60,824 bases of DNA from Gammaproteobacteria bacterium. Lineage in GTDB: Bacteria; Pseudomonadota; Gammaproteobacteria; Steroidobacterales; Steroidobacteraceae. Of this stretch, positions 20,976 through 36,553 are shown piece by piece. The notes under the pieces were generated by a model. That model worked only from the letters and a program-made list of their open reading frames with translations. It had not been told where the DNA came from and ran no database searches. A program made the translations under genes and the position numbers. Each line of letters begins with the position of its first letter. The first letter of the stretch is position 1. The stretch covers positions 1-60,824 of the forward strand of contig JADZCS010000230.1 in the NCBI GenBank assembly GCA_020851435.1. The letters are read 5' to 3'.

Positions 20976-22289
20976 ATGACGACGCGGCAGGCCCTCCTCG
21001 CCCTTGCAATCGCCCTGGGCCTGGCCGGCGCGGCACGGGTGCCGCCCGCCTGGGCCGACGGGGCGCAGCGAACGGCCAGCGCCATCTCTGCCGCCGTGGA
21101 TGCCGAGGCACCGGCCGCCGTAGACCTGCTCGAGCGGCTGACGACGCAGAACTCCGGCAGCTTCAACCGGACCGGCGTCGAGGCCGTTGGCCGGATGCTC
21201 GAGGCGGAACTGAAGGCGCTGGGCTTTCGGACGCGCTGGGTGCCGATGGACGCCATCGGGCGCGCGCCGCATCTCGTCGCCGAGCGTGACGGCGGCCATG
21301 GCCAGCGACTGCTGCTGATCGGGCACATGGACACGGTGTTCGAGCCCTTCCATCCCTTCCGCAAGTTCACGCGCAACGGCGACTCCGCCACGGGTCCGGG
21401 CGTCAACGACATGAAGGGCGGCCTGGTCGTCATGCTGTCCGCGCTCAAAGCACTGCGCGCGGCCGGGGCGCTGGACGAAGCCCGCATCACGGTGTTCATC
21501 ACCTCCGACGAGGAGGCGCCTGGCGAGCCGGTCGAGCAGTCACGCCGTGAACTCGTCGAGATCGCGAAGCGCTCCGACGCAACGCTGTGCTTCGAATCAG
21601 GCATCAGCCGCGATGGCAGGGACTATGCGTCGATCGGGCGGCGCGGTTTTACGGGATGGCGCGTCGCCAGCGAGGGCCGCCCCGGCCACTCTGGCGGCAT
21701 CTTCTCCGCGCAGCAGGGCGATGGCGCCGCTTTCGAGCTGAGCCGGGTGCTGAGCCGCTTCCACGACGAGCTGCGCGAGCCGAACCTCACCTACAACGTC
21801 GGCCTGATGCTCGGCGGCGCCAACATCAAGCTCGAGGACGCCGGCATCGGCTCGGTCGCGGGCAAGGCGAACATCGTGCCCGCCGAGGCCCAGGCGATCG
21901 GGGACCTTCGGGCGCTGACGCCGGCCCAGGTCGAGCGCGTCAGGCAGCGCATGCGCGAGATCGTCGCCGCCAGCCTGCCCGGGACGACGTCGACGATCAG
22001 CTTCGAGGGCGCCGAGTACCCGCCCATGGAACCGACGCCGCGCAACGCGGCGCTGCTCGCCCGGTACAGCGAGGCGAGCGTGGCCATGGGCCTGCCCCAG
22101 GTGCTCACGCTCGACCCCTTGCTGCGCGGCGCAGGCGACTCGGCGTTCGTGAGTCCCTATGTCGCGACGATCACGGGCCTCGGCGCCGTCGGCCAGGGCG
22201 CGCATGCCGCCGGAGAGAGCGTGGACCTCACGCGCCTGCCGGTGCAGGCCAGGCGCGCGGCGATGCTGATCCGCATGCTCAGTAGGTAG
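20976..22289 (+). CDS. secreted M20-family metallopeptidase (carboxypeptidase G2-like)
   Basis: A 437-residue zinc exopeptidase with a signal peptide (LLALAIALGLAGAARVPPAWA). Metal and catalytic residues of M20 enzymes are visible: GHMDTVF, GPGVNDMKGGLVVML, TSDEEAPGEP for the catalytic glutamate, a dimerisation domain with RPGHSGG, and a C-terminal GAHAAGESVDL with the last zinc histidine. CAGGAG lies nine bases before ATG 20976. It resembles glutamate carboxypeptidases, but the substrate is unknown. The 3' end overlaps the convergent CotH gene by 11 bases, and these joint ends have a diverged copy at 34219-34373. Confidence 0.88.
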   Translation: MTTRQALLALAIALGLAGAARVPPAWADGAQRTASAISAAVDAEAPAAVDLLERLTTQNSGSFNRTGVEAVGRMLEAELKALGFRTRWVPMDAIGRAPHLVAERDGGHGQRLLLIGHMDTVFEPFHPFRKFTRNGDSATGPGVNDMKGGLVVMLSALKALRAAGALDEARITVFITSDEEAPGEPVEQSRRELVEIAKRSDATLCFESGISRDGRDYASIGRRGFTGWRVASEGRPGHSGGIFSAQQGDGAAFELSRVLSRFHDELREPNLTYNVGLMLGGANIKLEDAGIGSVAGKANIVPAEAQAIGDLRALTPAQVERVRQRMREIVAASLPGTTSTISFEGAEYPPMEPTPRNAALLARYSEASVAMGLPQVLTLDPLLRGAGDSAFVSPYVATITGLGAVGQGAHAAGESVDLTRLPVQARRAAMLIRMLSR

Positions 22290-22356
22290 CGTTTATCGCC
22301 TGGTCCATCCACTGGAAGCGATTGCCGACCCAGACCTGCAGGGCAACGACCTGCGC
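22103..22356. repeat. upstream parent copy of an imperfect direct repeat (M20/CotH gene ends)
   Basis: This segment, spanning the 3' ends of the convergent M20-peptidase and CotH genes, recurs in the same orientation at 34219-34373. The second copy lacks 78 bases (after 22138) and 21 bases (after 22311). The aligned blocks are about 92% identical by hand count, so the two copies bracket the cytochrome cluster. Confidence 0.8.
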
Positions 22357-24147
22357 CTCCCAGGTATTGGCGGCGAGCAGTTCGGGCGGGGTGGCCCATG
22401 TCCCCACGCCGAGCACAGGCCAGCGCTGGAAATTCAACTTCTGGCTCTTTGCCAGCAACGCGCGCTGCCGGGTGATGGACGCCGCGACTTCCGCCTGCAG
22501 AGTGCCCTTGACCTCGTTCCAGCGCGCCTTGAACGCGGCTCGGAACTCCGCCTCCCGGAACAGCCCCTCGTACCAGGGGGCGTAGGTCGGGAACCATCCA
22601 TGCCAGTCGTTGAGCGCGTAACCGCCAATGGCGCCGTAATTGGAATTGCCGGCCCCCAGGTCGAAATCCCAGATCGGCCCCATGGCCATTTTCTGGCCCT
22701 TGTCGCGGTACAGGTTCACGCTGGACATGAACATGCTGTCCTGGTTCTTGAAAAGCTCCTGCACGATCAACCAGTCGATGAACGAGGGAACGTCGACCAG
22801 GCTGGCCCCTGGCACGCCGCTCTTCAGGCCATCCTCGATCTGCTGGACCATCGCCTGGATGTAGGCCTTCTGCCCTGGCGTAAGGCTGTCCGCCTTGGGC
22901 GACTTGTAGTCGAATATCTGCCCATCGGTGGTCGTGAAGTAGTCGACACCGGCCACACCGCCTTCCAGCGGTGAGCGAAGGTTCGCCTCCAGCCAATAGC
23001 CTGTGTCATCGAGCGTCGTCGGCTTCTCGACCGGAATCCGGCCGCTGCCGATCTCCATCTGCTCGCCCACTGTATAGGTGCCCTGGTAGGCCCCGTTCAG
23101 GAACAGGTCCACCGGCAGTGCGCTGGGCGTGAAACTGAGATTCGTGAGCCGGCGCGCTACGTCGAACGCCAGTTGGGTCCGCATCAGGCTCATGTCGAAG
23201 TAGCTGGCGAGCAGGACCCAGTTCTTTGCCGCTGGCAGTCCCAGCACGGCGGCCGAGGCGTCGAGCGTGAAGCGGTAGGGCTTCTTTGGCTGGCCCCAGG
23301 TGGAGTTGCCGCGCCCCTTGATCTTCATCGTGCTGGTCGGCAGGGGCTGCGCGTAACTGGTCGAGCCACCGATGATCGTGATGTCACCCGTTACATAGAA
23401 GTCCTTGGAGTCGATCGGCACGCCGCCCGTGCTGCGGATGATCACCGAGGGGATGCCGCTGTCGCCGATATCCAGCGTGTAGCGCCGGGCGTTGCCGGTC
23501 GCGTCGACCACGAGCAGTTCGCGGACTGTGGTCAGGTCCAGCGTCGCCGGACTGGATACCGGCCTGCCGCTAACGAACACCGTGCCGCCATCGGTCACGA
23601 ACGACACACTGACTACCGCAGCGGTGCCACCGGGAAGCGTCGCTGCGATGCGTCCGCCGGCAGGCGTCTGCTCGACGTCGGCAGGGCCCCGGAACGGCAG
23701 CAGCAGTGGGTGGGGTGCCGACTCCACCATGAATGCTGTCAAACGATTCGTGCCAGGCGGGGCCGGCGTGACCGTCAGCGCGACCGTGGTCGGAGTCGTG
23801 TGGACCAGGTTTCCCGACATGCCCTTGACCGTCAGCGCATGCCCCTGCACGGCGGCCGCAGCGGAGACAGAGATCGTCAGTGTGCCGTACGAACTGTCCT
23901 TAGGGATGACCCCCGTTGCGGTCACACCGGCCGGGGGCGCTTCGAGGCTCAGTTCGATGGCGGCCTTGTGGCCACCCGTGCGCAGCGCCGTCACCGTGAT
24001 TATGCCGGTGCTGTTGCCTTGGACCGCCAAGGCAGCGGTCCCGCTGGCCAGGGCGAAATCCGGCGACGCGCCACTGCCACCACCACCGCAGGCACTCAAC
24101 AGGGCCAACCCGAGCGTAAGCAGGCCCGTGCGCAAAACGACCTTCAC
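22279..24147 (-). CDS. CotH-family kinase-like lipoprotein
   Basis: A 622-residue lipoprotein (lipobox LLSAC, then a Gly/Ser spacer). Residues about 25-230 are beta-rich Ig-like sequence. The CotH domain follows: MKIKGRGNSTWGQPKKPYRF, SYFDMSLMRTQLAFDVARRL, VDLFLNGAYQGTYTVGEQME, and GPIWDFDLGAGN with the metal-binding DFD. CotH proteins are atypical protein kinases in spore coats and are also found widely on bacterial surfaces. GTG 24147 is chosen because AAGGAG lies seven bases upstream and the lipoprotein signal then starts correctly. It points away from the cytochrome cluster, so co-function is not certain. Confidence 0.9.
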   Translation of the reverse strand: MKVVLRTGLLTLGLALLSACGGGGSGASPDFALASGTAALAVQGNSTGIITVTALRTGGHKAAIELSLEAPPAGVTATGVIPKDSSYGTLTISVSAAAAVQGHALTVKGMSGNLVHTTPTTVALTVTPAPPGTNRLTAFMVESAPHPLLLPFRGPADVEQTPAGGRIAATLPGGTAAVVSVSFVTDGGTVFVSGRPVSSPATLDLTTVRELLVVDATGNARRYTLDIGDSGIPSVIIRSTGGVPIDSKDFYVTGDITIIGGSTSYAQPLPTSTMKIKGRGNSTWGQPKKPYRFTLDASAAVLGLPAAKNWVLLASYFDMSLMRTQLAFDVARRLTNLSFTPSALPVDLFLNGAYQGTYTVGEQMEIGSGRIPVEKPTTLDDTGYWLEANLRSPLEGGVAGVDYFTTTDGQIFDYKSPKADSLTPGQKAYIQAMVQQIEDGLKSGVPGASLVDVPSFIDWLIVQELFKNQDSMFMSSVNLYRDKGQKMAMGPIWDFDLGAGNSNYGAIGGYALNDWHGWFPTYAPWYEGLFREAEFRAAFKARWNEVKGTLQAEVAASITRQRALLAKSQKLNFQRWPVLGVGTWATPPELLAANTWEAQVVALQVWVGNRFQWMDQAINATY

Positions 24148-24298
24148 GCAGCAACTCCTTCGAAACGTCGACCAGATCAATGCGGCAGGATAGCAGGAAG
24201 GCGTCGATTACATGGGTCGCCCCAGCCGGTCCGGCACTGAACCAGCAGCAACCTGCTTTGCGGGTCGCACCCAACTCGCGCCGGAAACTCCGTATATA

Positions 24299-24400: not shown

Positions 24401-25060
24401 ATGACTTCACGAGACTTCGTCCTGGGCCTGGCGGCCACGGCAGTGGCCCTTGCCATGCTCCCGGCAGTTGCCGGCGCCGACACCATCGTCGGCTCGGACC
24501 ACGACTTCTCCGGCGACGGCTGGTCGGGCGGCGAGATCTGCGTGGCCTGCCACACACCGCATAACGCCGACACCAGTGTAACCAACGCGCCGTTGTGGAA
24601 TCACTCGCTGACGACGACGAGTTTCACCCTCTACAGCTCGGCCACCATGAACGCAACCGTCGGCCAGCCGGACGGCTCGTCCAAGCTGTGCCTGTCCTGC
24701 CATGACGGCACGGTGGCGCTCGACAGTTTCGGTGGCAAGACCGGCACCAGCTACATCGGCGGTGGCCAGAATCTGGGCACGACTCTCGCGAACGACCACC
24801 CGGTATCGATCACCTACAACACCGCCCTCGCCACCGCCGACGGGTCGCTGGCGGACCCGGCGACTGCGCAGGTCACGATCGGCACCAGCGGCAACGGCGG
24901 CAGGACCAAGACCGGTTCCATCAGCGCCATCATGGCCCCGGACGGCAAGGTCCAGTGTTCTTCATGCCACGACGTGCACAACACCTATACCAACGGCGCC
25001 AGCCTGCTAGTCAAGAGCAATGCAGGCAGCGCGTTGTGCCTGACCTGCCACGTGAAGTAA
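24401..25060 (+). CDS. secreted tetraheme c-type cytochrome
   Basis: A 219-residue exported cytochrome with a signal peptide (LAATAVALAMLPAVAGA) and four heme-attachment motifs: CVACH, CLSCH, CSSCH and CLTCH. The spacing CHTPHN...CHDGT...CHDVHN is the doubled-CXXCH pattern. It aligns along its whole length with the N-terminal third of the 563-residue cytochrome at 29420. ATG 24401 has GGGAG seven bases upstream; earlier in-frame starts put the signal peptide too far inside. A terminator-like hairpin follows, so it may be transcribed partly on its own, for example in excess over the rest of the cluster. Confidence 0.92.
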   Translation: MTSRDFVLGLAATAVALAMLPAVAGADTIVGSDHDFSGDGWSGGEICVACHTPHNADTSVTNAPLWNHSLTTTSFTLYSSATMNATVGQPDGSSKLCLSCHDGTVALDSFGGKTGTSYIGGGQNLGTTLANDHPVSITYNTALATADGSLADPATAQVTIGTSGNGGRTKTGSISAIMAPDGKVQCSSCHDVHNTYTNGASLLVKSNAGSALCLTCHVK

Positions 25061-25100
25061 CGCACGGCGTCTGAGACACTGGATCGACTGCAGGACGCAA

Positions 25101-25140
25101 TCGCCGCCACGAGGCGAACAGCCAGTGACGGCGGTTTTCT
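25101..25140 (+). terminator. intrinsic terminator or attenuator after the tetraheme cytochrome
   Basis: TCGCCGCCAC (25101-25110) can pair with GTGACGGCGG (25125-25134) with one mismatch and one wobble, a 14-base loop, and a following TTTTCT. It lies between the first cytochrome and the long operon, so it could reduce read-through. Confidence 0.6.
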
Positions 25141-25210
25141 CTTGTCGAATGTTCAAGACAAGACAAGGGCAATGCCCAGGGAGTGGGGCGTGGGTAGTTC
25201 CGCAAGGTGC

Positions 25211-26329
25211 ATGGTGAGCTTGCGTACGGTTGCCGCCGCGTTGGCAGTGGTGACCATCGTCTGCGGCTGCGCCAGCCAGGCCCCGCGCACGTCGGAATCG
25301 ATTGCACCGATTTTCTACCCTGCTCTCCCTGACCAGCCTCGCCTGCAATTCCTCGCACGCTTCTCGACCGAAGCGGACCTGGCGACGAAGTCCTCCGCGC
25401 TGCAGGACTTCGTCCTGGGCGCCGAGACCAGCGGCAGTGACCTGCTGGTCAAGCCGTATGGCGTCGATATCCACGACCAGGCCATTTTCGTGGTGGACAC
25501 GCGAAACTCAGGCTGGGCAGTGTTCGACCTGGCGCAGCGCCGTACGCGTGTCGTCCGGCCGTCAGGAGCCGGCGCGCTGCGCAAGCCCATCAACATCAGC
25601 ATCGATGCGGACGGCACGCGCTACGTCACCGATACGGGCCGCGACCAGGTGGTTGTCTTCGATGCCAACGACCGATACCTGCGCGCCTTCGGCAAGGCCG
25701 GCGAGTTCCAGCCTGTAGATGCAGTGGTGTCGGGCGACCGGCTGTATGTGACGGACATCGCACACCACCAGGTTGTGGTGCTGAACAAGCACACCGGCGT
25801 GGAACTCCGACGTTTTGGTGCGGCGGGCTCCGGGGACGGCCAGCTTTTCCAGCCGACCAACCTGGCAATAGACGCCGCTGGCGATGTCTATGTCACGGAT
25901 ACCGGAAATTTCCGTGTCCAGAAATTCTCGCCAGATGGCCAGCTGCGGCGTTCATTCGGCAGGATCGGGACCGTGGCCGGTCAGTTCGCGCGCCCGAAGG
26001 GCATAGCCGTGGACCGATCAGGCCGCCTGTATGTGGGGGATGCTGCGTTCGAGAACATCCAGTTGCTGGATGCTGATGGGAACCCGCTGCTGTACATGGG
26101 CGGCCCCGGGGACGGCCGCGACAGCATCAACCTTCCAGCTGCCATCACCGTGGACTACGCCAACGTCGGCGCCTTTCAGCAATACGCTGCGCCTGGCTTC
26201 ATGATCGATTACGTCGTGCTCGTCGCGAGCCAGTTCGGCGTGAACAAGATCGTCGCATTCGGCTTCGGCAGCTATCGCCAGACGGGAGCAGACGTTGCAC
26301 GACCGGCCGCAAGCCAAGACAGGCGCTGA
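25211..26329 (+). CDS. NHL-repeat beta-propeller lipoprotein
   Basis: A 372-residue probable lipoprotein: hydrophobic signal LRTVAAALAVVTIVCGC with a lipobox-like VCGC, followed by an NHL propeller of about six blades. Repeats are easy to see: PINISIDADGTRYVTDTG, TNLAIDAAGDVYVTDTGNFR, GIAVDRSGRLYVGDAAFEN. ATG 25211 is preferred; ATG 25172 would add 13 residues before the signal. It is the first gene of the overlapping operon that runs to 34035 and overlaps the barrel gene by 35 bases. NHL propellers usually bind proteins or ligands; here it may cap or organise the cytochrome complex at the outer membrane (inference). Confidence 0.85.
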   Translation: MVSLRTVAAALAVVTIVCGCASQAPRTSESIAPIFYPALPDQPRLQFLARFSTEADLATKSSALQDFVLGAETSGSDLLVKPYGVDIHDQAIFVVDTRNSGWAVFDLAQRRTRVVRPSGAGALRKPINISIDADGTRYVTDTGRDQVVVFDANDRYLRAFGKAGEFQPVDAVVSGDRLYVTDIAHHQVVVLNKHTGVELRRFGAAGSGDGQLFQPTNLAIDAAGDVYVTDTGNFRVQKFSPDGQLRRSFGRIGTVAGQFARPKGIAVDRSGRLYVGDAAFENIQLLDADGNPLLYMGGPGDGRDSINLPAAITVDYANVGAFQQYAAPGFMIDYVVLVASQFGVNKIVAFGFGSYRQTGADVARPAASQDRR

Positions 26330-28373
26330 GCGGCAACCCGGCCGGCGCGCGTGGCGCTGCGCTGCCCGCGGCGCGGTGGGGTGTGCATGGCTGACGTTAT
26401 CAGTGGGTACCGCGGTCGCTGGCGACGGCAACGGCAATGGCAATGGGCACAGCACACCGATCGCCGCGCTGCGCGTCATCGATTTCGGCGGCTTCGCCAG
26501 CGCTCGTTACCTGATGGATGAAGAGAGTCGCGGCGCTCCAGGAAGCGGGGCTTCCTTCCAGACGCTCGCCAGCTTGGAGGAAGAGCTCCAGTTGTGGGCC
26601 CGTGGCTATGCGTACCACCCCAATCTCGCCACCTGGCAGGCGGAAGGCGGCCCGGTCCTGGTGCAGCAGACATATGACAGCAGTGCCGGCGCCAACCGCA
26701 AGAACGACGTGCTGTTCAATTTCGCTGCACGCATGGATTTTCTGGAGAAGAAAGCCTATCCGTTCGCGGTCTACTTCCGGCGCGGTCACCCGACACTCAG
26801 CACTACTCTCACTGGTTCCTTCCTGACCGAGACGACCGGCTACGGCGCAAGCGCCAGCCTGCTGGAGCCGGTCGCGCCGGTTCAGGTTGAAGTCGATGCG
26901 TCGCATGACGAGACCACCGGGGCCGGCCTTGACAGGCGCATCGACGATACGCTGGACATCGCGTCCATCCGCTTCAGCAAGTCCTACCGCAAAGGCGACT
27001 GGGTGCGCCTGGACCACACGCGGACGCGCCAGGAATCGGCCAGCGGCAGCCCCAACCTACCCGTGTTGCAGTCACTAACCAGAACCGACTCGACCGACTT
27101 CGCTGCGGAAAACGTATTCGGCGAGCGCCGCCAGCTGACCCTCAGGCAGCAGGGGAATCTGCTGGACCAGACGCTCGAAAACCCAGGCATGACCGACTTC
27201 AGCTATGCGACGTACATGGCCGACCTGCGCGCGCAACACCGGCCGGATTTCGCCACCTTCTACCGCTACGACTACCGTAACAGCTCGCGCGACAACCAAG
27301 GTTCACGGCTGGATGCAGTGGTAGCCGGGCTCAATGGTGTCCGCGGCGAGACCGTCGGCTACAGCGCGGACTCGCACGCCACTCGCGAGCGCTCGGAGGG
27401 CTTCCGCCGCACGATCGGTGGTGCGCGTGCCACGGCCAACTATACGCTGGCCGACTGGGGCTTCGGCTCGCTGTCGCTCGGCGGCAGCTGGAATGCCGAC
27501 CGCACCGACCAGCAGTCCACAGTCAACCAGGTGTCAGTTTTCGGTGAACAGGTCGTGCTGGCAGGAACAGCCCCGGTCACACTCAGGAACCCGTATATCG
27601 TAACCTCGACGGTAGTGGTTCGGAACCTGACCCAGACTCAGGTGTACGCCGAGGGCCTTGACTACCGGCTGGTCACCGTCGGAAGCGATGTGTCCATACA
27701 GCGACTTCTGGGCGGCAACATCCTGGATGGAGAAACCGTGCGGGTGGATTACGACTATGAGCCCGGTGGCACGGTCACCTATGACTCAATGGGCCAGTCG
27801 TACTCCGTGAGCACGACCCTGCTTCGCCACCTGACGGTGTTCGCCCGCTACCAGGATCTGCGCAATTCCATCATCAGCGGGCGCCCGACGCAGCCGCTCA
27901 ACGACGTCCGACTCTATGAGATGGGCGCGACCTTCGAGCACCCACTGTGGCACAGCTTCAATATCGGCGGCGAAGTCCGGCATACCAACCAGGACGAGGA
28001 CATCGCACCCTACGTACGCGACTCCTACTCGGCCTACCTTGACGCGCCGGTACCCGGTACGACTAGTTTCCGGCTGACGGCCTACAGCGAGAAGGTCGAC
28101 AACGCCCGCTCGGCCGAGGATGTCGACCTCGTCAGGTTCGCTGTTCACGTGCAAGTCCGTACCTGGGGCCGCATATCCTGCGCGCTGGACGCTGACTACG
28201 AGCAAGATACCGGCGGGACGCTGGAGCGCCGGCGTCGCAGCCAGACGCTTGGTCTCGACTGGAATTACCGACGGGTTCGCTTCGGCCTGCGGGCCCAGCA
28301 TTTCGACGAATCGCAGGGCGACACCACCCGCGAGGACAGCACCGTACGCGCCTTCATCGCAAGGGACTTCTGA
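26295..28373 (+). CDS. outer-membrane beta-barrel protein of the cytochrome cluster
   Basis: A 692-residue protein with an Arg-rich N-terminus and signal-like CAWLTLSVGTAVAG, then a Gly/Asn stretch and a long series of amphipathic strands (ATANYTLADWGFGSLSLGGS, YSVSTTLLRHLTVFARYQD, LGLDWNYRRVRFGLRAQHF). It ends in phenylalanine (AFIARDF), as outer-membrane barrels usually do. No known porin family is recognised. The TTG start at 26295 overlaps the NHL gene; GTG 26376 is an alternative. Size and neighbours fit the porin part of a porin-cytochrome conduit that holds a multiheme protein across the outer membrane. That role is inferred. Confidence 0.82.
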   Translation: MHDRPQAKTGAERQPGRRAWRCAARGAVGCAWLTLSVGTAVAGDGNGNGNGHSTPIAALRVIDFGGFASARYLMDEESRGAPGSGASFQTLASLEEELQLWARGYAYHPNLATWQAEGGPVLVQQTYDSSAGANRKNDVLFNFAARMDFLEKKAYPFAVYFRRGHPTLSTTLTGSFLTETTGYGASASLLEPVAPVQVEVDASHDETTGAGLDRRIDDTLDIASIRFSKSYRKGDWVRLDHTRTRQESASGSPNLPVLQSLTRTDSTDFAAENVFGERRQLTLRQQGNLLDQTLENPGMTDFSYATYMADLRAQHRPDFATFYRYDYRNSSRDNQGSRLDAVVAGLNGVRGETVGYSADSHATRERSEGFRRTIGGARATANYTLADWGFGSLSLGGSWNADRTDQQSTVNQVSVFGEQVVLAGTAPVTLRNPYIVTSTVVVRNLTQTQVYAEGLDYRLVTVGSDVSIQRLLGGNILDGETVRVDYDYEPGGTVTYDSMGQSYSVSTTLLRHLTVFARYQDLRNSIISGRPTQPLNDVRLYEMGATFEHPLWHSFNIGGEVRHTNQDEDIAPYVRDSYSAYLDAPVPGTTSFRLTAYSEKVDNARSAEDVDLVRFAVHVQVRTWGRISCALDADYEQDTGGTLERRRRSQTLGLDWNYRRVRFGLRAQHFDESQGDTTREDSTVRAFIARDF

Positions 28374-29423
28374 ATGCGCGCCAGCAGCGTCACGGGCCGT
28401 TTCACTACGCTGATCGGCTCGCTGCTGGCGGTAGCCGGCTGCAGTACGGCCCCAGCGCGGGTGCAGCTCGACATCGCGCCGGAACAGGGCATCCGCTGGC
28501 CTGCCGCGCCTGATCCAGCCCGCATCACGTTCCTCGGCGAGTTCCGCACGCCCGCCGACCTGGGGGTGACGAAGACCGCCTGGCAGCGCATCTCCGATCT
28601 GGTGGCGGGATCTGCGCCGGATGCACTGGTTCAGCCCATGGCAGTGGTCGCGACCGATGATCGTGGACGCGTCTATGTAGCCGACCCAGGCGCCGGCGTC
28701 GTACACGTGTTCGACCGCACGCGTGGACGGTACCGCCGCCTGCAGGCCGAGGGCCACCAGCCGCTGCCCTCGCCGGTCGGGCTCGCACTGGCGCTGGATG
28801 GCCGCCTGTTCGTCGCCGACTCGAAGCTCAACCAGGTCTTAGTCGCCGCGCACGGCGCAACCGTATTGCGAGCACTGCCCCTGCAGGCCACCCTGTCGCA
28901 GCCCACAGGCCTCGCGTTCGACGACGCGACCGGACGGCTGTTCGTCACCGAGACCGGCGCTCACCGGATCAGCGCGTTCGACGCCACCGGTCGACTCATC
29001 GAGCGCATTGGCACGCGTGGCGCGGGTTCCGGCGAGTTCAACTTTCCGACGTACCTCTGGCTTGATACGGACCGGCTGCTGGTCACCGACTCGCTGAACT
29101 TCCGGGTGCAGGTATTGGATGCACAACATCGGCCAACCGGGCAGCTCGGCTCGCTGGGCAGTGCGCCTGGCAACCTGCCGCGCCCCAAGGGCGTGGCAAT
29201 GGACTCGGGTGGCCATGTCTACGTAGTCGACGCTCTGCTGCACGACCTGCAGGTATTCGATGGCAGCGGAGCGCTGCTGCTTTCCCTGGGATCGCAGGGT
29301 TCGGGACCGGGTGAGTTCTGGTTGCCAAATGGCCTCTGGATCGGGCCAGACAACACAATCTACGTCGCTGACACGCACAACCGCCGAGTTCAGGTCTTCC
29401 GCTACACAGGGTCCACTCCATGA
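28374..29423 (+). CDS. NHL-repeat beta-propeller lipoprotein
   Basis: A 349-residue lipoprotein (signal TTLIGSLLAVAGC, lipobox VAGC). The NHL blades are clear: MAVVATDDRGRVYVADPG, GLAFDDATGRLFVTETGAHR, GVAMDSGGHVYVVDALLHD and a final GLWIGPDNTIYVADTHNRR. It is related to the NHL lipoprotein at 25211 (both have a short pre-propeller region with PA.PDQPR/PAAPDPAR and a 'F..aDL' motif), so the pair are paralogues on either side of the barrel gene. Its start directly abuts the barrel stop, and its stop overlaps the next cytochrome start (ATGA). Confidence 0.9.
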   Translation: MRASSVTGRFTTLIGSLLAVAGCSTAPARVQLDIAPEQGIRWPAAPDPARITFLGEFRTPADLGVTKTAWQRISDLVAGSAPDALVQPMAVVATDDRGRVYVADPGAGVVHVFDRTRGRYRRLQAEGHQPLPSPVGLALALDGRLFVADSKLNQVLVAAHGATVLRALPLQATLSQPTGLAFDDATGRLFVTETGAHRISAFDATGRLIERIGTRGAGSGEFNFPTYLWLDTDRLLVTDSLNFRVQVLDAQHRPTGQLGSLGSAPGNLPRPKGVAMDSGGHVYVVDALLHDLQVFDGSGALLLSLGSQGSGPGEFWLPNGLWIGPDNTIYVADTHNRRVQVFRYTGSTP

Positions 29424-31111
29424 GGCTGCCAATCCGGACGGCGATCGTCATCACGATGCTGGTCACGGTGTCCCCCGTGGCGCTGCCAGAGGTCGCAAGT
29501 ACCCGCCACAACCTGTCTGTGTCCGGGCCGGGCGCCGTGAAGGCGAGCACGGAGAACGAGATCTGCGTGTTTTGCCACACGCCGCACAACGCCTCGACGG
29601 CCGCCCAACTGTGGAACCGCAGCGCTTCCACGGCCACCTATGTCCCATACAGCAGCAGCACCGCGAAGGCGAGCCCCGGGCAGCCGACCGGTTCCTCGAT
29701 CCTTTGCCTGAGCTGCCATGACGGGACCGTGGCGCTCGGCAACGTGCTGAGCCGGACAACGCCGATCGCGATGGCCGGTGGCTTGACCACCATGCCTTCC
29801 GGCGCCGGGCTGATCGGCACCAACCTGACCCACGATCATCCGTTCTCTTTTCCCTACACCAGCACGCTCGCCTCGCAACAGGGTGAACTGGCGGACCCGG
29901 CCTCGTTGCGATCCGAGGTCCGGCTTGACGCCAGTGGCCAGCTGCAGTGCTCAACCTGCCACGATCCCCATGACGATCGCAACGGCAAGTTCCTGGTCCT
30001 GGCGAACCAGGGGTCGGCGCTGTGCACGACCTGCCACACCAAGGCGTCGTGGTCGCAGTCGGCTCACGCCACATCGACCGCGACCTGGAACGGCCAAGCC
30101 CCCGATCCCTGGCCGACAAGCGGCCTGACCACCGTCGCAGCCAATGCCTGCGGCAACTGCCATCTGTCGCATGCGGCAACTGGTGGTCCGCGCCTGCTTC
30201 CCTACGCCACCGAGGAGGCGAACTGCAGCAGCTGCCACAACGCCAAGGTCGCAACGCAAGACGTCATGGCCGCGTTCAGTTCAACTTCCAGCCACCCGAT
30301 CGGCTCGACCACCGGTGTCCACGACCCCGCCGAACAGTCCCTGGTCACATCAAGACACGTGGAGTGCGCCGACTGCCACGAACCGCACTCGGCACGCGCC
30401 AATGCGGATGCGGCGCAAGGGGCACTGCGCAACGTGCGCGGCATCAACCTCGCCGGGGCAGCGATCGAGCCGATTACCAGGACCCACGAACTCTGTTTCC
30501 GCTGCCACTCCGACAGCCCCGGCCTGCCTGCACCCAGGACCGCCCGCCAGATTGCCCAGAGCAACACGCGCCTGGAATTTCAGCTTGGCAACCCGTCCTT
30601 CCACCCTGTCGGCGGCGCGGGGCGCAACGCTGACGTGCCCAGCCTGATCGCACCGTGGACGACGACCTCGACAATGGACTGCACGGACTGTCACAACAAC
30701 AGCGCCTCCCGAACGCTTGGCGGAAGCGGCGCAGACGGGCCGCACGGCTCGTCGTACAGGCCGCTGCTCAACCGCAATTACATCACGACTGACAATACGG
30801 CTGAGAGCAGCGCGGCGTACTCACTGTGCTATGCCTGCCACAGTCGCACCAGCATCCTCAACGATGCGAGCTTCGGCGATCACGACAAGCACATCCGCGG
30901 TGAGAGCACTCCCTGCAACGTGTGCCACGACCCGCATGGGGTCAGCGCCACGCAGGGCACCACCACCAACAACTCGCACCTTATCAATTTCGACACCAGC
31001 GTCGTGTTGCCGAACAGCGACGGGCAGCTCCGCTTCGTCGACGGTGGGAGATTTACCGGGTCCTGCGACCTTTTGTGCCATGGCAAGAATCACCGCGGCG
31101 AGAACTACTGA
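29420..31111 (+). CDS. large multiheme cytochrome c (11 CXXCH plus one CX3CH)
   Basis: A 563-residue exported cytochrome and the largest electron carrier of the cluster. After a signal peptide, heme motifs are CVFCH, CLSCH, CSTCH, CTTCH, CGNCH, CSSCH, CADCH, CFRCH, CTDCH, CYACH and CNVCH. A final CDLLCH has one extra residue between the cysteines (31064-31081). Residues ~45-210 repeat the whole tetraheme protein at 24401. There is no lipobox, so it is periplasmic, barrel-embedded or secreted. Overlap with the preceding NHL lipoprotein suggests the two are made together. Confidence 0.93.
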   Translation: MRLPIRTAIVITMLVTVSPVALPEVASTRHNLSVSGPGAVKASTENEICVFCHTPHNASTAAQLWNRSASTATYVPYSSSTAKASPGQPTGSSILCLSCHDGTVALGNVLSRTTPIAMAGGLTTMPSGAGLIGTNLTHDHPFSFPYTSTLASQQGELADPASLRSEVRLDASGQLQCSTCHDPHDDRNGKFLVLANQGSALCTTCHTKASWSQSAHATSTATWNGQAPDPWPTSGLTTVAANACGNCHLSHAATGGPRLLPYATEEANCSSCHNAKVATQDVMAAFSSTSSHPIGSTTGVHDPAEQSLVTSRHVECADCHEPHSARANADAAQGALRNVRGINLAGAAIEPITRTHELCFRCHSDSPGLPAPRTARQIAQSNTRLEFQLGNPSFHPVGGAGRNADVPSLIAPWTTTSTMDCTDCHNNSASRTLGGSGADGPHGSSYRPLLNRNYITTDNTAESSAAYSLCYACHSRTSILNDASFGDHDKHIRGESTPCNVCHDPHGVSATQGTTTNNSHLINFDTSVVLPNSDGQLRFVDGGRFTGSCDLLCHGKNHRGENY

Positions 31112-31113
31112 CC

Positions 31114-32052
31114 ATGGCCAGTCACCCCCATCGGCTCGCGATGGCAGGCAGGCCAAGCCACAGGATGGTGTCAGGCTATGCGCAGTGGCTACTGACCGGT
31201 TGGCTGGCCTGGACCGGACTCGCAGTAGCCGAGGAACAGCCGCACTGGCGTGATGACCGCTGCGACGCGTGCCACACGACGCCGGGCCCGGCGGTCGGGG
31301 CTGCCCCGCTGAAAGCAAGCCTTGCGGACGAGGGTTGCGCCGAATGCCATGACGGCTCAACTGCTGGCGGCTGCGGTCACCGCTCGCCGCTGACCGCGCC
31401 TGAAGCCATGGTTTCGCAGATGCCATCTACCCAGGCGGCTGCAATGGCGGGCGGAAAGGTCGGCTGCGTGACCTGTCACGACCTCAAACAGCAGTGTCTG
31501 GCCGAGCATCGCGAGGGGCGCGCTGCGAACCCGGCGTTCCTGCGCGATGGCCCGTATCGGGACGTCAGCGAGCAATGCTACGGGTGCCACACGCGCAGCG
31601 CACAGCGCAAGCTTAATCCGCACCGCCAGGTCTCTGCCGGAGCGGGCGTGATCAAGGAATCCTGCCTGCTGTGTCACCCCGCTACGCCGTCGACGGCTCC
31701 GGACAGCTCGCCCAAGCCAGGGTTTCACCTGGCGAGTGACCTCAATGCGGTCTGCGCGGGTTGCCACCCGGTGGCACCGCACCCGGGCTTCAACAATCGC
31801 CCCGCCAAGCGCGGACCACGCTGGACACACCTGGTAAAACCCTCACCGCAGATGCTCGAATTCATGCGCGCCAGATCGACAGCGACTGGTCTGCAGCTCC
31901 CGCTCGAACCGGGAACCGACCGCATCGTCTGCTCGACTTGCCACAATCCGCACGCCACGGACCTGCCGGGCTATCCCGCTGGAGGGGAGGCCGGGACCGG
32001 CGACTACAAGCTCCGTGCCAGCAACATCTGTAGTGCTTGCCATGAAATTTAG
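31114..32052 (+). CDS. octaheme c-type cytochrome
   Basis: A 312-residue cytochrome with eight CXXCH sites: CDACH, CAECH, CVTCH, CYGCH, CLLCH, CAGCH, CSTCH and CSACH, the last only two residues from the C-terminus (CHEI). A hydrophobic segment YAQWLLTGWLAWTGLAVAEE is the signal peptide. ATG 31114 lies two bases after the previous stop; an in-frame ATG 17 codons later gives a shorter leader and is possible. The motif spacing differs from the tetraheme-module family. The gene's last 11 bases overlap the next NHL gene. Confidence 0.92.
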   Translation: MASHPHRLAMAGRPSHRMVSGYAQWLLTGWLAWTGLAVAEEQPHWRDDRCDACHTTPGPAVGAAPLKASLADEGCAECHDGSTAGGCGHRSPLTAPEAMVSQMPSTQAAAMAGGKVGCVTCHDLKQQCLAEHREGRAANPAFLRDGPYRDVSEQCYGCHTRSAQRKLNPHRQVSAGAGVIKESCLLCHPATPSTAPDSSPKPGFHLASDLNAVCAGCHPVAPHPGFNNRPAKRGPRWTHLVKPSPQMLEFMRARSTATGLQLPLEPGTDRIVCSTCHNPHATDLPGYPAGGEAGTGDYKLRASNICSACHEI

Positions 32053-33007
32053 TCTCGCATCCCGTCGGGCCAGCCAGGCTTCCACCGTTGCAACCGCGTG
32101 GCTAGTACTGCTGGGCGCCACCCTCACGGATGCACGCGCCGAGGACGCCGCGACACTTGGGCTGCTGGAGTCACGCCGAATGGCAACGCTGGGGCCCGAT
32201 CAGGACGGGCCGTCCCTGCCGACCGATGTCGTCGTCACGGCCGATGGCCGCGTGTTCGTCGTGGAAGGTGCCAAGCAACGGGTCGTGGTCTATGACGCCG
32301 CAGGCCGACGCACGGGGCAACTGGGCACCGGCGATGGCGAGGCCGCCGCGCTCAAGGACCCGGTTGGCATCGGCGCTGGCCCGGATGGCACGCTCTATAT
32401 CGCGGATCGCGGCAATCAGCGCATCGCCATCTTCAGCGACAACGGCCGCTTCAAGACCGCGCTGGCAGTGCACGTGGACGGCCAGCCGACTTCCCCGGTC
32501 GATGTGGCCGTCGGCCGCGATGGAAGGCTCTACATCACCTGCAGCAACCACCGGGTGATGGTGATGGATCCGTCCGGCGGGGTGAGGGCCTCGTGGGGTG
32601 GTCGTGGCACCGGCGATGGCGAGTTCCAGTATCCGGCCACCGTGGCGATCGACCAGGATGGCTCTGTATTCGTGGTGGACGTCATTAATGCCAGGATCCA
32701 GAAGTTTGATTCGGAGGGCCGCTTCCTGCTTGCCTTCGGCAAGCTCGGGGCGACACCCGGCAGCCTGTACCGGCCGAAGGGCATTGCCCTGGCGGCGGAC
32801 GGCCGCCTGTTCGTGAGTGACAGCTATCTGGGCGTGGTGCAGGTCTTCGACCGCAGCGGCCGGTTCCTGCGGGTACTGGGCGATGCCGGCAAGGTGCGGC
32901 GCTGGAACACGCCGGTGGGCCTTGCAGTCGACGGGCGCGGCCGCCTGCTGGTGACCGAGATGCTTCCAGGCACTGTGTCGATCACCGAACTGGAGGCGCT
33001 GCAATGA
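32042..33007 (+). CDS. secreted NHL-repeat beta-propeller protein
   Basis: A 321-residue exported NHL propeller, third in the cluster. It has an ordinary signal peptide (STVATAWLVLLGATLTDARA) without a lipobox cysteine, so it should be soluble. The blades include PTDVVVTADGRVFVVEGAKQ, VGIGAGPDGTLYIADRGNQR, ATVAIDQDGSVFVVDVINAR and GLAVDGRGRLLVTEM. ATG 32042 overlaps the end of the octaheme gene, and its stop overlaps the next cytochrome start (ATGA). It may be a periplasmic or extracellular partner of the flanking cytochromes, in contrast to the two NHL lipoproteins. Confidence 0.9.
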   Translation: MKFSLASRRASQASTVATAWLVLLGATLTDARAEDAATLGLLESRRMATLGPDQDGPSLPTDVVVTADGRVFVVEGAKQRVVVYDAAGRRTGQLGTGDGEAAALKDPVGIGAGPDGTLYIADRGNQRIAIFSDNGRFKTALAVHVDGQPTSPVDVAVGRDGRLYITCSNHRVMVMDPSGGVRASWGGRGTGDGEFQYPATVAIDQDGSVFVVDVINARIQKFDSEGRFLLAFGKLGATPGSLYRPKGIALAADGRLFVSDSYLGVVQVFDRSGRFLRVLGDAGKVRRWNTPVGLAVDGRGRLLVTEMLPGTVSITELEALQ

Positions 33008-34035
33008 GTTCGCCCACGCTGCGTGTCGCGGCATGCTGGGTGCTTGGCGCCTTGTTGACGCTGGCCGTCGGAACGATGCCGGCCGGTGCCGCAGAAGTGG
33101 CCGAGCAATTCAAGTGCCCTGCCTGCCACCTGGGTCGCCTCAAGGAATTCAAGAATCCGGACATAGTGACGCTGGTGACAAACGAGCCAACGCCGCTGGA
33201 GCCCAGCGGCCGGCAGAACGCGGCGAGCGCCTCCGGTATGTGCCTGTCCTGCCACGATGGCTTCGTGCTCGACTCCCGCGCGACCTTCGCCGCCGCGCAT
33301 GCGGCCCACCCCGTGGGCGTCGTGCCGTCTCCGCGCATCCGGCAGCCGGAAGCGGGCGCGGACCCGGCCTTCCCGCTCAACGACGACGGCAAGGTGTATT
33401 GCGGCAGCTGCCACACCGCCCACGCTGACGAGGACGCCGCGTCCGAGGCCCCGCCGTTCATGCGCGTCGGGCCGAGCGACGGCCAACTCTGCAGTGGCTG
33501 CCACGCCGACCAGGGCGGCATGGCGGGTTCGCCGCACGGCCGAGTCCGGGGAGCCGGCAAGCCCGGAGCTCCAGCCGATTTCGAAGGCAGTGGGCTGTGC
33601 GGCAAGTGCCACGTGGCGCATGTCGCAAAGGGGCCGCTGCTGTGGGCCAAGGTCCCCGGGGAGGGCAACGCCCAGACCGATCGATTGTGCCGCAGCTGCC
33701 ACCGTGCCACTGGCGGCGTGGGCTTGCCCGCCCGCACCGACCATCCAGGTGAAGTCTGGGCCTGGTCACAGTCGCTGCGTAGCGGCATGCGCGCGCGCTC
33801 AACCCAGGAGATGCCGGTGTTCGACAAGTCTGGACACCGCGCCGTCATCGGCCAGATCAGCTGCGCGACCTGCCACGACGCGCACGGCCCGGCCACCGCT
33901 GGTGAGGGCACGTCAACCTCGCGCACGCTGCTCCGGGTGACTGACACGACCGAGTTCCTGTGTGCCGACTGCCATGCTCAGCGCTCGCTGCTTCTTTACC
34001 GGTACTTCCACTCGAAAGCAACGCACTCCCATTGA
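33004..34035 (+). CDS. octaheme c-type cytochrome
   Basis: A 343-residue exported cytochrome with a signal peptide (CWVLGALLTLAVGTMPAGAA) and eight heme sites: CPACH, CLSCH, CGSCH, CSGCH, CGKCH, CRSCH, CATCH and CADCH. The CLSCHDGF...HPVGV segment recalls the tetraheme module of the other two cytochromes. The C-terminus is His-rich (YFHSKATHSH). It is the last gene of the cluster. The relic of a crystallin gene starts about five bases after its stop. Confidence 0.92.
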   Translation: MSSPTLRVAACWVLGALLTLAVGTMPAGAAEVAEQFKCPACHLGRLKEFKNPDIVTLVTNEPTPLEPSGRQNAASASGMCLSCHDGFVLDSRATFAAAHAAHPVGVVPSPRIRQPEAGADPAFPLNDDGKVYCGSCHTAHADEDAASEAPPFMRVGPSDGQLCSGCHADQGGMAGSPHGRVRGAGKPGAPADFEGSGLCGKCHVAHVAKGPLLWAKVPGEGNAQTDRLCRSCHRATGGVGLPARTDHPGEVWAWSQSLRSGMRARSTQEMPVFDKSGHRAVIGQISCATCHDAHGPATAGEGTSTSRTLLRVTDTTEFLCADCHAQRSLLLYRYFHSKATHSH

Positions 34036-34381: not shown

Positions 34382-35176
34382 CTACACCCGGGGCTCGCCC
34401 TGACGGTTCACGCTGACGGTGTCGCCCGGACGGTCGGTCATCTGCACGCGATGCTGCTTGCCGCGGTAGTTGTAGGTCACGTCCCAGTAGTCGACGTCGC
34501 CGGCAACCTGCTCGCAACGACGCACGTCCTGGGTGTAGCTGCCATCGCGGCCGACATTGGCGCCCACTGCAGCGCCGACGGCGACGCCGCCGACGGTCGC
34601 AACGTCATTGCCGCGACCGCTGCCGATCTGGTGGCCGATGACGCCGCCGATCAGGGCGCCGGCGAGCGCGCCGGGGACGTTCGCACCGCTGCGTTCGCCA
34701 CTGACACGCTCACGCTCGACCCAGCAGCGCTGCCCATCCTGGCCCATGACCGCATGGGCCGAGGTCACCCGCGCTTCGTAGAGCCGCTCGTCGCTGCGAC
34801 GTCGATAATCGTAGGAAGCCGACGGCTGCGGCGCATAGCGGTCGTCTTCGTACTGAGCCTTCGATCCGACACGGCGGACCGACGACACGCGATTGTTCAT
34901 CGACATGTCGGCCAGCGACGGATAGCTGCCCTTGCGCAATATGACGCACCGGCCCCGGTAACCCGAATCTTCGCAGACCTCCCAGCGGTTGCTGTGCACC
35001 ACGACCGATGACGCGCGGTTGTTGATGCGGGTGTTGGAGAGGTTGCTGGCCTGGCGCTGCACGGTGAGCGCGCGCCCGGAGAAGTTGGCGTTCTCGTAGA
35101 AGGTGACCTGTGCCGACGCGGAAGTGGCGATCGCCAGCCCGGCGACGGCCAGTGCGTTTCTCAAAATCTTGTTCAT
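34382..35176 (-). CDS. beta/gamma-crystallin and glycine-zipper envelope protein
   Basis: A 264-residue exported protein. Signal peptide MNKILRNALAVAGLAIATSA is followed by a beta/gamma-crystallin domain (VTFYENANFSGRALTVQ, WEVCEDSGYRGRCVILRKGSY). The C-terminal half is a 17-kDa-antigen-like glycine-zipper module: NVPGALAGALIGGVIGHQIG, VGGVAVGAAVGANVGRD, then a small beta domain ending RPGDTVSVNRQGEPRV. Such proteins associate with the outer membrane. AGGAC lies six bases before the ATG. It is divergent from the OmpA gene; the 237 bases between hold a GGCACGG-CA-CCGTGCC hairpin and TGCATCGATGCA (35349-35360). Confidence 0.9.
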   Translation of the reverse strand: MNKILRNALAVAGLAIATSASAQVTFYENANFSGRALTVQRQASNLSNTRINNRASSVVVHSNRWEVCEDSGYRGRCVILRKGSYPSLADMSMNNRVSSVRRVGSKAQYEDDRYAPQPSASYDYRRRSDERLYEARVTSAHAVMGQDGQRCWVERERVSGERSGANVPGALAGALIGGVIGHQIGSGRGNDVATVGGVAVGAAVGANVGRDGSYTQDVRRCEQVAGDVDYWDVTYNYRGKQHRVQMTDRPGDTVSVNRQGEPRV

Positions 35177-35413
35177 GGAAATGTCCTGTAGGAGCTTCTG
35201 GGCACGGCACCGTGCCGGTCGCCTGGTTAGCGTGAAGCCATGGTGATCCACGCGGACGAACGTGTCGGTTCGCCACCGCACCGCTGCCGGCACAAGAGGC
35301 CGGTGCGCCAGCGTACAGACCGGCAGCCGCAGTGCTGTTAGAAGGGATTGCATCGATGCAGGCGTGGAACCGCAAGCATCGCCCCAGCCCCAAGGAAATT
35401 CTGAGAGAGCCAA

Positions 35414-36553
35414 ATGAAAACAATCCATGCGATAAGCCTGTTGAGCCTCGCCGGACTCGGCACATTGATAGCAGCTCCAGCCGTTGCGCAGGATGACAGC
35501 TACTTTTACGGCGGATTCGGCGTCGGCCAGTCCGACGCGGATATCGACAAACAGCGCGTCAGCACGATGATCGAGGATACGGAGCTCACGGTCACCTCGT
35601 TGAAGCTCGACGAAAGCGACATCGGCTACAAGGTCTTCGGCGGCTACCAGTTCAACCGCTATTTCGGCCTCGAGGCCGGCTACTTCGACCTCGGCGAGTT
35701 CGGATTCAAGGCCGCGACGGCTCCCGATGGCACGTTCGACGGCAACTTCAAGGTCAGGGGCGTCAACCTCGACCTGGTGCTCACCATGCCGATGGGCGAG
35801 CGGTTCGCCTTCATCGCTCGCGGCGGCGCGCAGTACGCCGAGACCAAGGACAGCTTCAAGGGAACTGGCGCGGTCACCGTGCTCGATTCCAAGCGCAGCG
35901 ACAAGGCCACCAACTACAAGTACGGCGTCGGCCTTCAGTACGAGTTCAGCCCGTCGTTCCTGATGCGCGCCGAAGCCGAGCGCTATCGCGTCAGCGACGC
36001 CCTGGGCAGCGAGGGCAACATCAACCTCTACTCGGTGAGCCTGGTGTTCCCGTTCGGGCGCAGGCACGCCGAGCCAGTGGCCGTGACCCAGGCCTACACG
36101 CCTCCGCCGGCTCCCGCCGTCGCCCCGCCGCCGGCGCCGGTTCCCCCGCCGCCGGCGCCGGCCCCGACACGCCGTCGCGTCAGCTTCTCGGCGGAAGCGC
36201 TGTTCGGCTTCGACAAGTCGACGCTCCGGCCTGAGGGCATGGCGGCACTCGACACCTTCGCCAGCGAACTGCGCGGCAGCCAGTTCGAAGTGATCACGGT
36301 CGAGGGTCATACCGACCGCATGGGCTCCGAGGAATACAACCAGCAACTCTCCCTGGAGCGGGCCACCGTGGTCAAGGACTACCTGGTCAGCAGGGGCGGC
36401 GTCGAGGCCGGCAAGGTGTCGGCAGTCGGCAAGGGCGAGTCCCAGCCGATCAGCAAGGCCGAAGACTGTGACCAGCGGCCCAACCGCGCGTCGCGCATCG
36501 CCTGCCTGCAGCCCGACCGCAGGGTCGAGATCGAGGTGGTCGGCTCGCGTTGA
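35414..36553 (+). CDS. OmpA-family outer-membrane protein
   Basis: A 379-residue protein with a signal peptide (MKTIHAISLLSLAGLGTLIA), an eight-strand OmpA-like barrel (residues about 25-220; FGGYQFNRYFGLEAGYFDLG, ending YSVSLVFPFGRR), a Pro/Ala linker of about 30 residues, and a C-terminal peptidoglycan-binding OmpA domain: FGFDKSTLRPEGMAALDTFA, VEGHTDRMGSEEYNQQLSLERA and the terminal NRASRIACLQPDRRVEIEV. The extra cysteine pair (EDCDQRP, ACLQ) is common in this type. It anchors the outer membrane to the wall. Two hairpins follow its stop. Confidence 0.93.
   Translation: MKTIHAISLLSLAGLGTLIAAPAVAQDDSYFYGGFGVGQSDADIDKQRVSTMIEDTELTVTSLKLDESDIGYKVFGGYQFNRYFGLEAGYFDLGEFGFKAATAPDGTFDGNFKVRGVNLDLVLTMPMGERFAFIARGGAQYAETKDSFKGTGAVTVLDSKRSDKATNYKYGVGLQYEFSPSFLMRAEAERYRVSDALGSEGNINLYSVSLVFPFGRRHAEPVAVTQAYTPPPAPAVAPPPAPVPPPPAPAPTRRRVSFSAEALFGFDKSTLRPEGMAALDTFASELRGSQFEVITVEGHTDRMGSEEYNQQLSLERATVVKDYLVSRGGVEAGKVSAVGKGESQPISKAEDCDQRPNRASRIACLQPDRRVEIEVVGSR

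What the first reader, a model, noticed from the sequence alone, without database searches (positions are those of the whole stretch)
24401..34035. Compact cytochrome / NHL-propeller / beta-barrel cluster: candidate electron conduit
Eight plus-strand genes, mostly overlapping by a few bases, encode 4-, 12-, 8- and 8-heme cytochromes, three NHL propellers (two lipoproteins, one soluble) and one outer-membrane barrel. Porin-cytochrome conduits with a barrel plus multiheme cytochromes are known (Mtr, Geobacter Omb/Oma/Omc, Ext). The NHL-barrel-NHL-cytochrome alternation and 32 hemes do not match a system I know in a gammaproteobacterium. Function in extracellular electron exchange is inferred, not shown.
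Basis: partly seen in the sequence, partly recalled or inferred. Interest (0 to 1): 0.85.

Follow-up and report, generated by a model that had tools for sequence, protein, structure and literature searches.

The report
Nanowire-tipped outer-membrane electron conduit
Eight adjacent bacterial genes encode four multi-heme proteins, three propeller proteins and one predicted outer-membrane barrel, and would likely build a wire that carries electrons between the cell and its surroundings; the core of the set recurs in a dozen phylum-level bacterial groups, and one heme protein is a relative of a known electrical-filament subunit.

The parts
24401..25060 (+). g1: tetraheme OmcE-family cytochrome (219 aa); predicted extracellular filament-type subunit
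   Evidence: 4 CxxCH; PDB 7tfs OmcE E 2.6e-25 (residues 6-219 of 219) and 9yuq E 4.2e-22; all four OmcE non-motif His kept, and the chain ends CxxCHxK as OmcE does
25211..26329 (+). g2: NHL propeller, lipoprotein-like; start ATG 25211 chosen by eye for its signal peptide (frame open from TTG 25142)
   Evidence: PF01436 1.9e-19; lipobox VCGC by eye; NHLg2-type genes found in 60 of 80 named loci
26295..28373 (+). g3: predicted outer-membrane beta-barrel (692 aa, TTG start with an upstream GGGAG)
28374..29423 (+). g4: NHL propeller, lipoprotein-like
   Evidence: PF01436 1.3e-28; lipobox VAGC by eye; an NHLg4-type gene lies directly before the undecaheme gene in 71 of 80 named loci
29420..31111 (+). 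g5: undecaheme cytochrome (11 CxxCH + 1 conserved CX3CH) with an OmcE-like N-terminal module (about residues 29-207)
   Evidence: homologue of Uet-type undecahemes over 497 columns
31114..32052 (+). g6: octaheme cytochrome, N-terminal signal by eye, predicted periplasmic
   Evidence: 8 CxxCH; PF09699 1.7e-14; g6-type genes follow the undecaheme in other gammaproteobacterial loci
32042..33007 (+). g7: third NHL propeller, N-terminal signal by eye, no lipobox
   Evidence: PF01436 9.1e-29; g7-type gene precedes the g8-type cytochrome in other gammaproteobacterial loci
33004..34035 (+). g8: octaheme cytochrome, short relative of 18-24-heme cytochromes in related loci
   Evidence: 8 CxxCH; L037 24-heme protein 404 bits, L097 18-heme protein 335 bits

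Best explanation
The cluster encodes a compact relative of the Uet porin-cytochrome conduit that would likely carry electrons across the outer membrane and out along an OmcE-type tetraheme cytochrome. Shown: the sequence family of the cytochromes and propellers, the OmcE relationship of g1 and of the first ~200 residues of g5, the conserved gene core, and the homology of g5 to Uet-type undecahemes. Predicted: g3 is an MtrB-sized barrel. Inferred: the 8-motif remainder of g5 (about 350 aa, close to the 333 of MtrA) lies in or at the barrel, while its OmcE-like module faces outwards as the first unit on which g1 subunits stack. Inferred: the NHL lipoproteins are docking or assembly factors, g2 for g1 and the barrel, g4 for g5. 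Inferred: the octahemes g6 and g8 link the barrel to the periplasmic and quinone side. Direction of flow is open.
Confidence: 0.6

Rival explanations
1. A nanowire assembly and secretion machine rather than a fixed conduit: the barrel exports g1 and the propellers govern folding or shape, as proposed for the Geobacter osc (omcS companion) operon.
For: PMC13194489 passages report Osc proteins proposed for OmcS folding (OscH), secretion (OscE, F, G) and morphology (OscD); that OscD is propeller-like and OscEFG channel-like is recalled, and the primary paper is not held. In the three Calditrichota loci and several Bacteroidota loci the barrel and NHLg2-type gene lie with the OmcE-type gene, apart from the NHLg4-undecaheme pair.
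Confidence: 0.2
2. A conduit in which g1 and the g5 N-terminal module are single surface cytochromes of OmcE fold that never polymerise, an MtrC-like terminal exchanger on a porin-cytochrome complex.
For: OmcE-like N-terminal modules also occur in a long (about 800-950 aa) undecaheme family, so the module can serve as an ordinary domain. g1-type proteins have a conserved extra His68 (61 of 64 rows) where OmcE has Arg.
Against: g1 ends directly after heme 4 like OmcE and keeps every OmcE ligand; the second PDB match, 9yuq, has 16 chains in its entry, which suggests but does not prove an assembly.
Confidence: 0.15
3. A soluble periplasmic electron store or reductase set with an unrelated barrel.
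For: Octahemes g6 and g8 look periplasmic (signal, no lipobox, by eye), and the genome has a NapC/NirT-type tetraheme next to a five-CxxCH protein.
Against: Barrel and short-type undecaheme co-occur in 13 of 13 undecaheme genomes; two lipoprotein-like propellers; OmcE relationship of g1.
Confidence: 0.05

Closest known systems
Uet (undecaheme electron transfer) system of Ca. Tenderia electrophaga and some Gallionella (PMC10734462 passages; primary paper PMC9599434 not held)
   Same: Tetraheme of OmcE type, outer-membrane barrel, two NHL proteins, undecaheme; g5 aligns with the undecaheme of Uet-type loci over 497 columns.
   Different: No trihemes (UetDEG) and no PPIase (UetB) in the cluster; undecaheme 563 aa instead of about 800-950; barrel only distantly similar (hhalign prob 95, 12% identity); extra g6-g7-g8 set.
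OmcE filament cytochrome of Geobacter sulfurreducens (PDB 7tfs)
   Same: g1 size, four motifs, four distal His and abrupt C-terminus; g5 N-terminal module has the same fold.
   Different: g1-type proteins have His68 where OmcE has Arg; filament formation untested; g5 fuses the module to eight further motifs.
MtrCAB / MtoAB and Geobacter Omb-Oma-Omc and Ext conduits
   Same: Barrel plus multiheme cytochromes; best VIA match of the barrel is MtrB.
   Different: No MtrB_PioB Pfam match in the protein or the genome; DmsE-family decaheme model far below its cut-off for g5 and g8; no NHL protein in the Mtr and Ext sets as described in the passages read.
Osc (omcS companion) operon, Geobacter
   Same: By description, filament cytochrome plus secretion and morphology factors (PMC13194489 passages).
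Geoalkalibacter ferrihydriticus locus Ga0056053_02426-02431 (PMC12016550 passages)
   Same: OmcE homologue with two NHL proteins and MtoA-like cytochromes in one locus.
   Different: Reported there as lacking mtoB and mtoD; sequences not compared here.

Membership tests
Uet system | Undecaheme UetJ | tested here: met
   hhalign of the g5 family with six undecahemes from loci L150-L155: E 2.1e-88, 497 columns. Four of these loci are Uet-type by gene content; the Tenderia sequence itself was not available.
Uet system | Extracellular tetraheme UetA | tested here: met
   g1 is tetraheme; both g1 and the tetraheme of Uet-type locus L154 match OmcE 7tfs and 9yuq. Extracellular position not tested.
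Uet system | Two NHL proteins UetHI | tested here: met
   g2 and g4, plus g7
Uet system | Barrel UetC of the same family | tested here: inconclusive
   Barrel predicted; hhalign with three Uet-type candidates prob 95.3, E 2.4e-8, 12% identity; the barrel model gave no labelled hit in L150-L155
Uet system | Three triheme cytochromes UetDEG | tested here: not met
   Only four multiheme frames in the window: 4, 11, 8 and 8 motifs
Uet system | Peptidylprolyl isomerase UetB in the cluster | tested here: not met
   No rotamase among the eight proteins; L154 has one
OmcE-family cytochrome | Sequence homology, four CxxCH and four OmcE distal His | tested here: met
OmcE-family cytochrome | Polymerises with a heme ligand shared across the subunit boundary | not testable with these tools
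   Property of OmcE from PMC9473688 passages; needs cryo-EM
MtrCAB/PCC (MtrB_PioB) | PF11854 barrel | tested here: not met
   No Pfam family on g3 at E <= 0.001; none in the genome
MtrCAB/PCC (MtrB_PioB) | MtrB-like fold of the barrel | tested here: inconclusive
PCC3 | Periplasmic cytochrome with 21-27 hemes in the cluster | tested here: not met
   Largest count is 11 + 1; two large multiheme frames lie elsewhere, on contig C169
Osc operon | Hexaheme OmcS and homologous companion genes | tested here: inconclusive
   No six-motif frame in the window; Osc sequences not held

The most novel reading that the evidence does not exclude
g5 is the long-sought base of a cytochrome nanowire: one polypeptide that is a barrel-lodged wire at its C-terminus and the permanent first OmcE subunit at its N-terminus, so that g1 subunits polymerise straight onto the outer-membrane conduit. 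The five-gene core would then be an ancient, phylum-spanning machine for rooting OmcE-type filaments in the cell envelope, each with a dedicated propeller for the filament side (g2) and for the base (g4).
Probability: 0.3. Interest if true: 0.87.

Novelty: new variant of a known kind. Interest (0 to 1): 0.62.

Why it matters
[quoted passage not shown] A conserved gene set that pairs an OmcE-type subunit with a cytochrome carrying the same OmcE fold fused to eight more motifs, beside a predicted barrel, names a concrete junction that structure work can test. It would also widen the range of candidate nanowire-bearing bacteria to 12 phylum-level groups, by record titles.

Tried and rejected
NHL-undecaheme fusions: ~900-aa frames looked like fusions; they were start extensions in another frame over a separate NHL gene in most of them (re-annotated), so no fusion is claimed. 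Single-sequence barrel scan of genome contigs found nothing; the alignment of the undecaheme worked. Single-sequence barrel search found 10 proteins among 7994 scored candidates, which wrongly suggested a rare barrel; the profile shows otherwise. Calling the cluster Uet outright was rejected. A motif search for prolyl isomerases found none in the annotated loci, but the motif was not validated and carries no weight. The phage tail tube match of the barrel (below its cut-off) was set aside as a small insert domain. The VIA list for g5 (10 chains) did not include MtrA; that absence proves nothing. The L037 b561 protein had no match in the own genome, but that search had no positive control, and PF01292 itself has eight matches there, six over the cut-off. 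A comparison with the Osc and Tenderia sequences could not be made (primary papers not held; sequences not found). Mantel correlations of 0.28-0.75 among the five core proteins cannot separate co-transfer from shared ancestry.

Dropped rows: alignment A2 held two one-residue rows by mistake and was replaced by A3, which leaves out P0007 and P0010 and the barrels of several loci. L119 and L120 (same places as L070 and L097) were left out; L124 gave no undecaheme by the filter.
Full report
WHAT IS THERE. Eight plus-strand genes fill 24401-34035. Gaps between neighbours are 150, -35, 0, -4, 2, -11 and -4 bases with the starts I chose. Four are multiheme cytochromes: g1 4, g5 11, g6 8 and g8 8 CxxCH. 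They are the only stop-to-stop frames of 100 aa or more in the window with three or more motifs, and shuffled versions average at most 0.06. g5 also has a C-terminal CX3CH, invariant in the 49 rows of A4, though the more distant L123 protein has 12 CxxCH and no CX3CH. g5 carries 16 non-motif histidines present in at least 48 of the 49 rows, more than the 12 needed for bis-His ligation of 12 hemes. g2, g4 and g7 are NHL propellers. g3 has no Pfam family at E <= 0.001. The genome is a 348-contig assembly, 95.8% complete with 6.4% estimated contamination.

THE TETRAHEME IS AN OMCE RELATIVE. g1 matches the OmcE filament subunit 7tfs at 2.6e-25 and 9yuq at 4.2e-22, nearly end to end. In 64 rows (g1, OmcE and 62 relatives from the loci) all four motifs are complete; three of the four OmcE-type distal His are in 64 of 64 rows and the fourth in 63. 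g1, OmcE and the twelve relatives printed stop right after the fourth motif with xK. In OmcE and OmcS a heme is ligated by a His of the neighbouring subunit (PMC9473688 passages).

CONSERVED CORE. g5 homologues are very common: 7447 of 7996 scored candidates. I annotated these by a barrel model built from ten sequences (E <= 1e-2), by best phmmer hit to the window's NHL genes (over 40 bits) and by motif counts. In the 80 named loci a barrel was found in 66, an NHLg4-type gene next to the undecaheme in 71, a g1-type cytochrome in 57, an NHLg2-type gene in 60, and all four in 45. Many loci are cut by contig ends: in the 40 with at least 5.5 kb on both sides the counts are 37, 36, 37, 37 and 32. 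The eight incomplete ones are L054, L069, L070, L071, L093, L100, L101 and L104. Those come, by record title, from Pseudomonadota, Thermodesulfobacteriota, Nitrospirota, Verrucomicrobiota, Kiritimatiellota, Planctomycetota, Bacteroidota, Ignavibacteriota, Calditrichota, KSB1, Hydrogenedentes and Myxococcota; most are metagenome-assembled genomes. Control: 160 NHL genes in 1195 kb within 7.5 kb of the undecaheme against 6 in 254 kb beyond. In the three Calditrichota loci and several Bacteroidota loci the set splits in two blocks, NHLg4-undecaheme and g1-NHLg2-(multiheme)-barrel, so each propeller tends to keep its own partner. A multiheme gene lies between NHLg2 and the barrel in 41 of 46 other loci but in 0 of 14 gammaproteobacterial ones, the window included.

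CO-OCCURRENCE. Of 369 class genomes, own included, 49 matched g5 at E <= 1e-20. I read 13 of these as short-type undecahemes from length and coverage (G156 split over two contigs; G268 and G368 covering only about residues 25-480). All 13 have a barrel match of 90 bits or more; one further genome, G253, has a barrel without a seen undecaheme, on a 4 kb contig. Five more genomes have only short, weaker barrel matches. In G340 and G368 barrel and undecaheme are not adjacent. In the undecaheme tree of 51 rows the 13 gammaproteobacterial rows form one group (92/72, under the starred level), the window pairing with L034. L034 has the same eight-gene order. With a single-sequence query none of 35 same-family genomes matched the barrel, and one same-order genome matched weakly (26.7 bits).

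RELATION TO UET. Many other matches are frames of about 780-960 aa. I read the 17 loci L017-L033 on the plus strand only; 9 showed such a frame, each with 11 CxxCH. Six neighbourhoods were fetched. Four (L151-L154) show trihemes, one or two NHL genes and the long undecaheme; L150 shows no triheme or NHL gene and L155 only two NHL genes. L154 also has an OmcE-like tetraheme, a PPIase and a 589-aa protein without Pfam family, which fits the Uet content given in PMC10734462. The L151 undecaheme also starts with an OmcE-like module (1.2e-21). hhalign joins the two undecaheme families over 497 columns, E 2.1e-88; the barrels only weakly. So this is a sister architecture of Uet, not Uet itself.

SECOND HALF. 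g6-g7-g8 corresponds to a longer gammaproteobacterial set: octaheme, 7-heme, cytochrome b561 (PF01292, tested in L037), 3-heme, NHL, 18-24-heme. g8 is a short relative of the 18-24-heme protein. The L037 b561 had no match at E <= 0.001 in this genome, which has other PF01292 proteins. A NapC/NirT-type tetraheme on contig C45 is a candidate quinol partner, by inference.

MECHANISM. Quinol-side donors, then g6/g8, then g5 in or at the barrel g3, then the OmcE-like module of g5, then g1 subunits outside; reversible in principle. Everything after family assignment and the barrel model is inferred. That no RuBisCO was found makes autotrophic electron uptake less likely in this organism but does not settle direction.

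NOVELTY. In the papers read in passages and the listings of searches, I saw no statement that the undecaheme of such clusters carries an OmcE-like module or that their tetraheme is OmcE-type; one paper notes an OmcE homologue beside two NHL proteins in Geoalkalibacter. The primary Uet, OmcE, nanowire-survey and Osc papers are not held, so they may say so.

After a second look I narrowed the reductase refuter to 'tested in part', added the b561 family matches, the L123 exception, the contamination figure and the non-adjacent genomes. None of these changed my odds.

Noticed in passing
window 27543-27803 (barrel residues 417-503): A conserved insert of the barrel matches a phage family of unknown function (phrog_18315, 6.5e-7; not seen for the two other barrels tested) and weakly a phage tail tube model (below cut-off); short ~250-285-aa frames in five class genomes match about the same segment.
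   Followed up: partly
window 24602-24604 (g1 His68): g1-type cytochromes have a conserved His (LWNH, 61 of 64 rows) where OmcE and g5 have Arg; it could be an extra ligand or contact.
   Followed up: no
L150-L155: A long (about 800-950 aa) undecaheme family shares the OmcE-like N-terminal module (L151 tested; family alignment), so the module occurs in two undecaheme lineages.
   Followed up: partly
L147 (G000 contig C169): Two large multiheme frames (23 and 21 CxxCH, overlapping, same strand) lie elsewhere in the same genome; frame or assembly not resolved.
   Followed up: no
L149 (G000 contig C45): A NapC/NirT-type tetraheme next to a five-CxxCH protein that looks like NrfA (family from memory, not from a search).
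   Followed up: no
window 22279-24180, minus strand: CotH-kinase-domain gene divergent to the cluster.
   Followed up: no
window 34385-36553: Beta/gamma-crystallin plus glycine-zipper gene (minus) and an OmpA-family gene (plus) just downstream.
   Followed up: no
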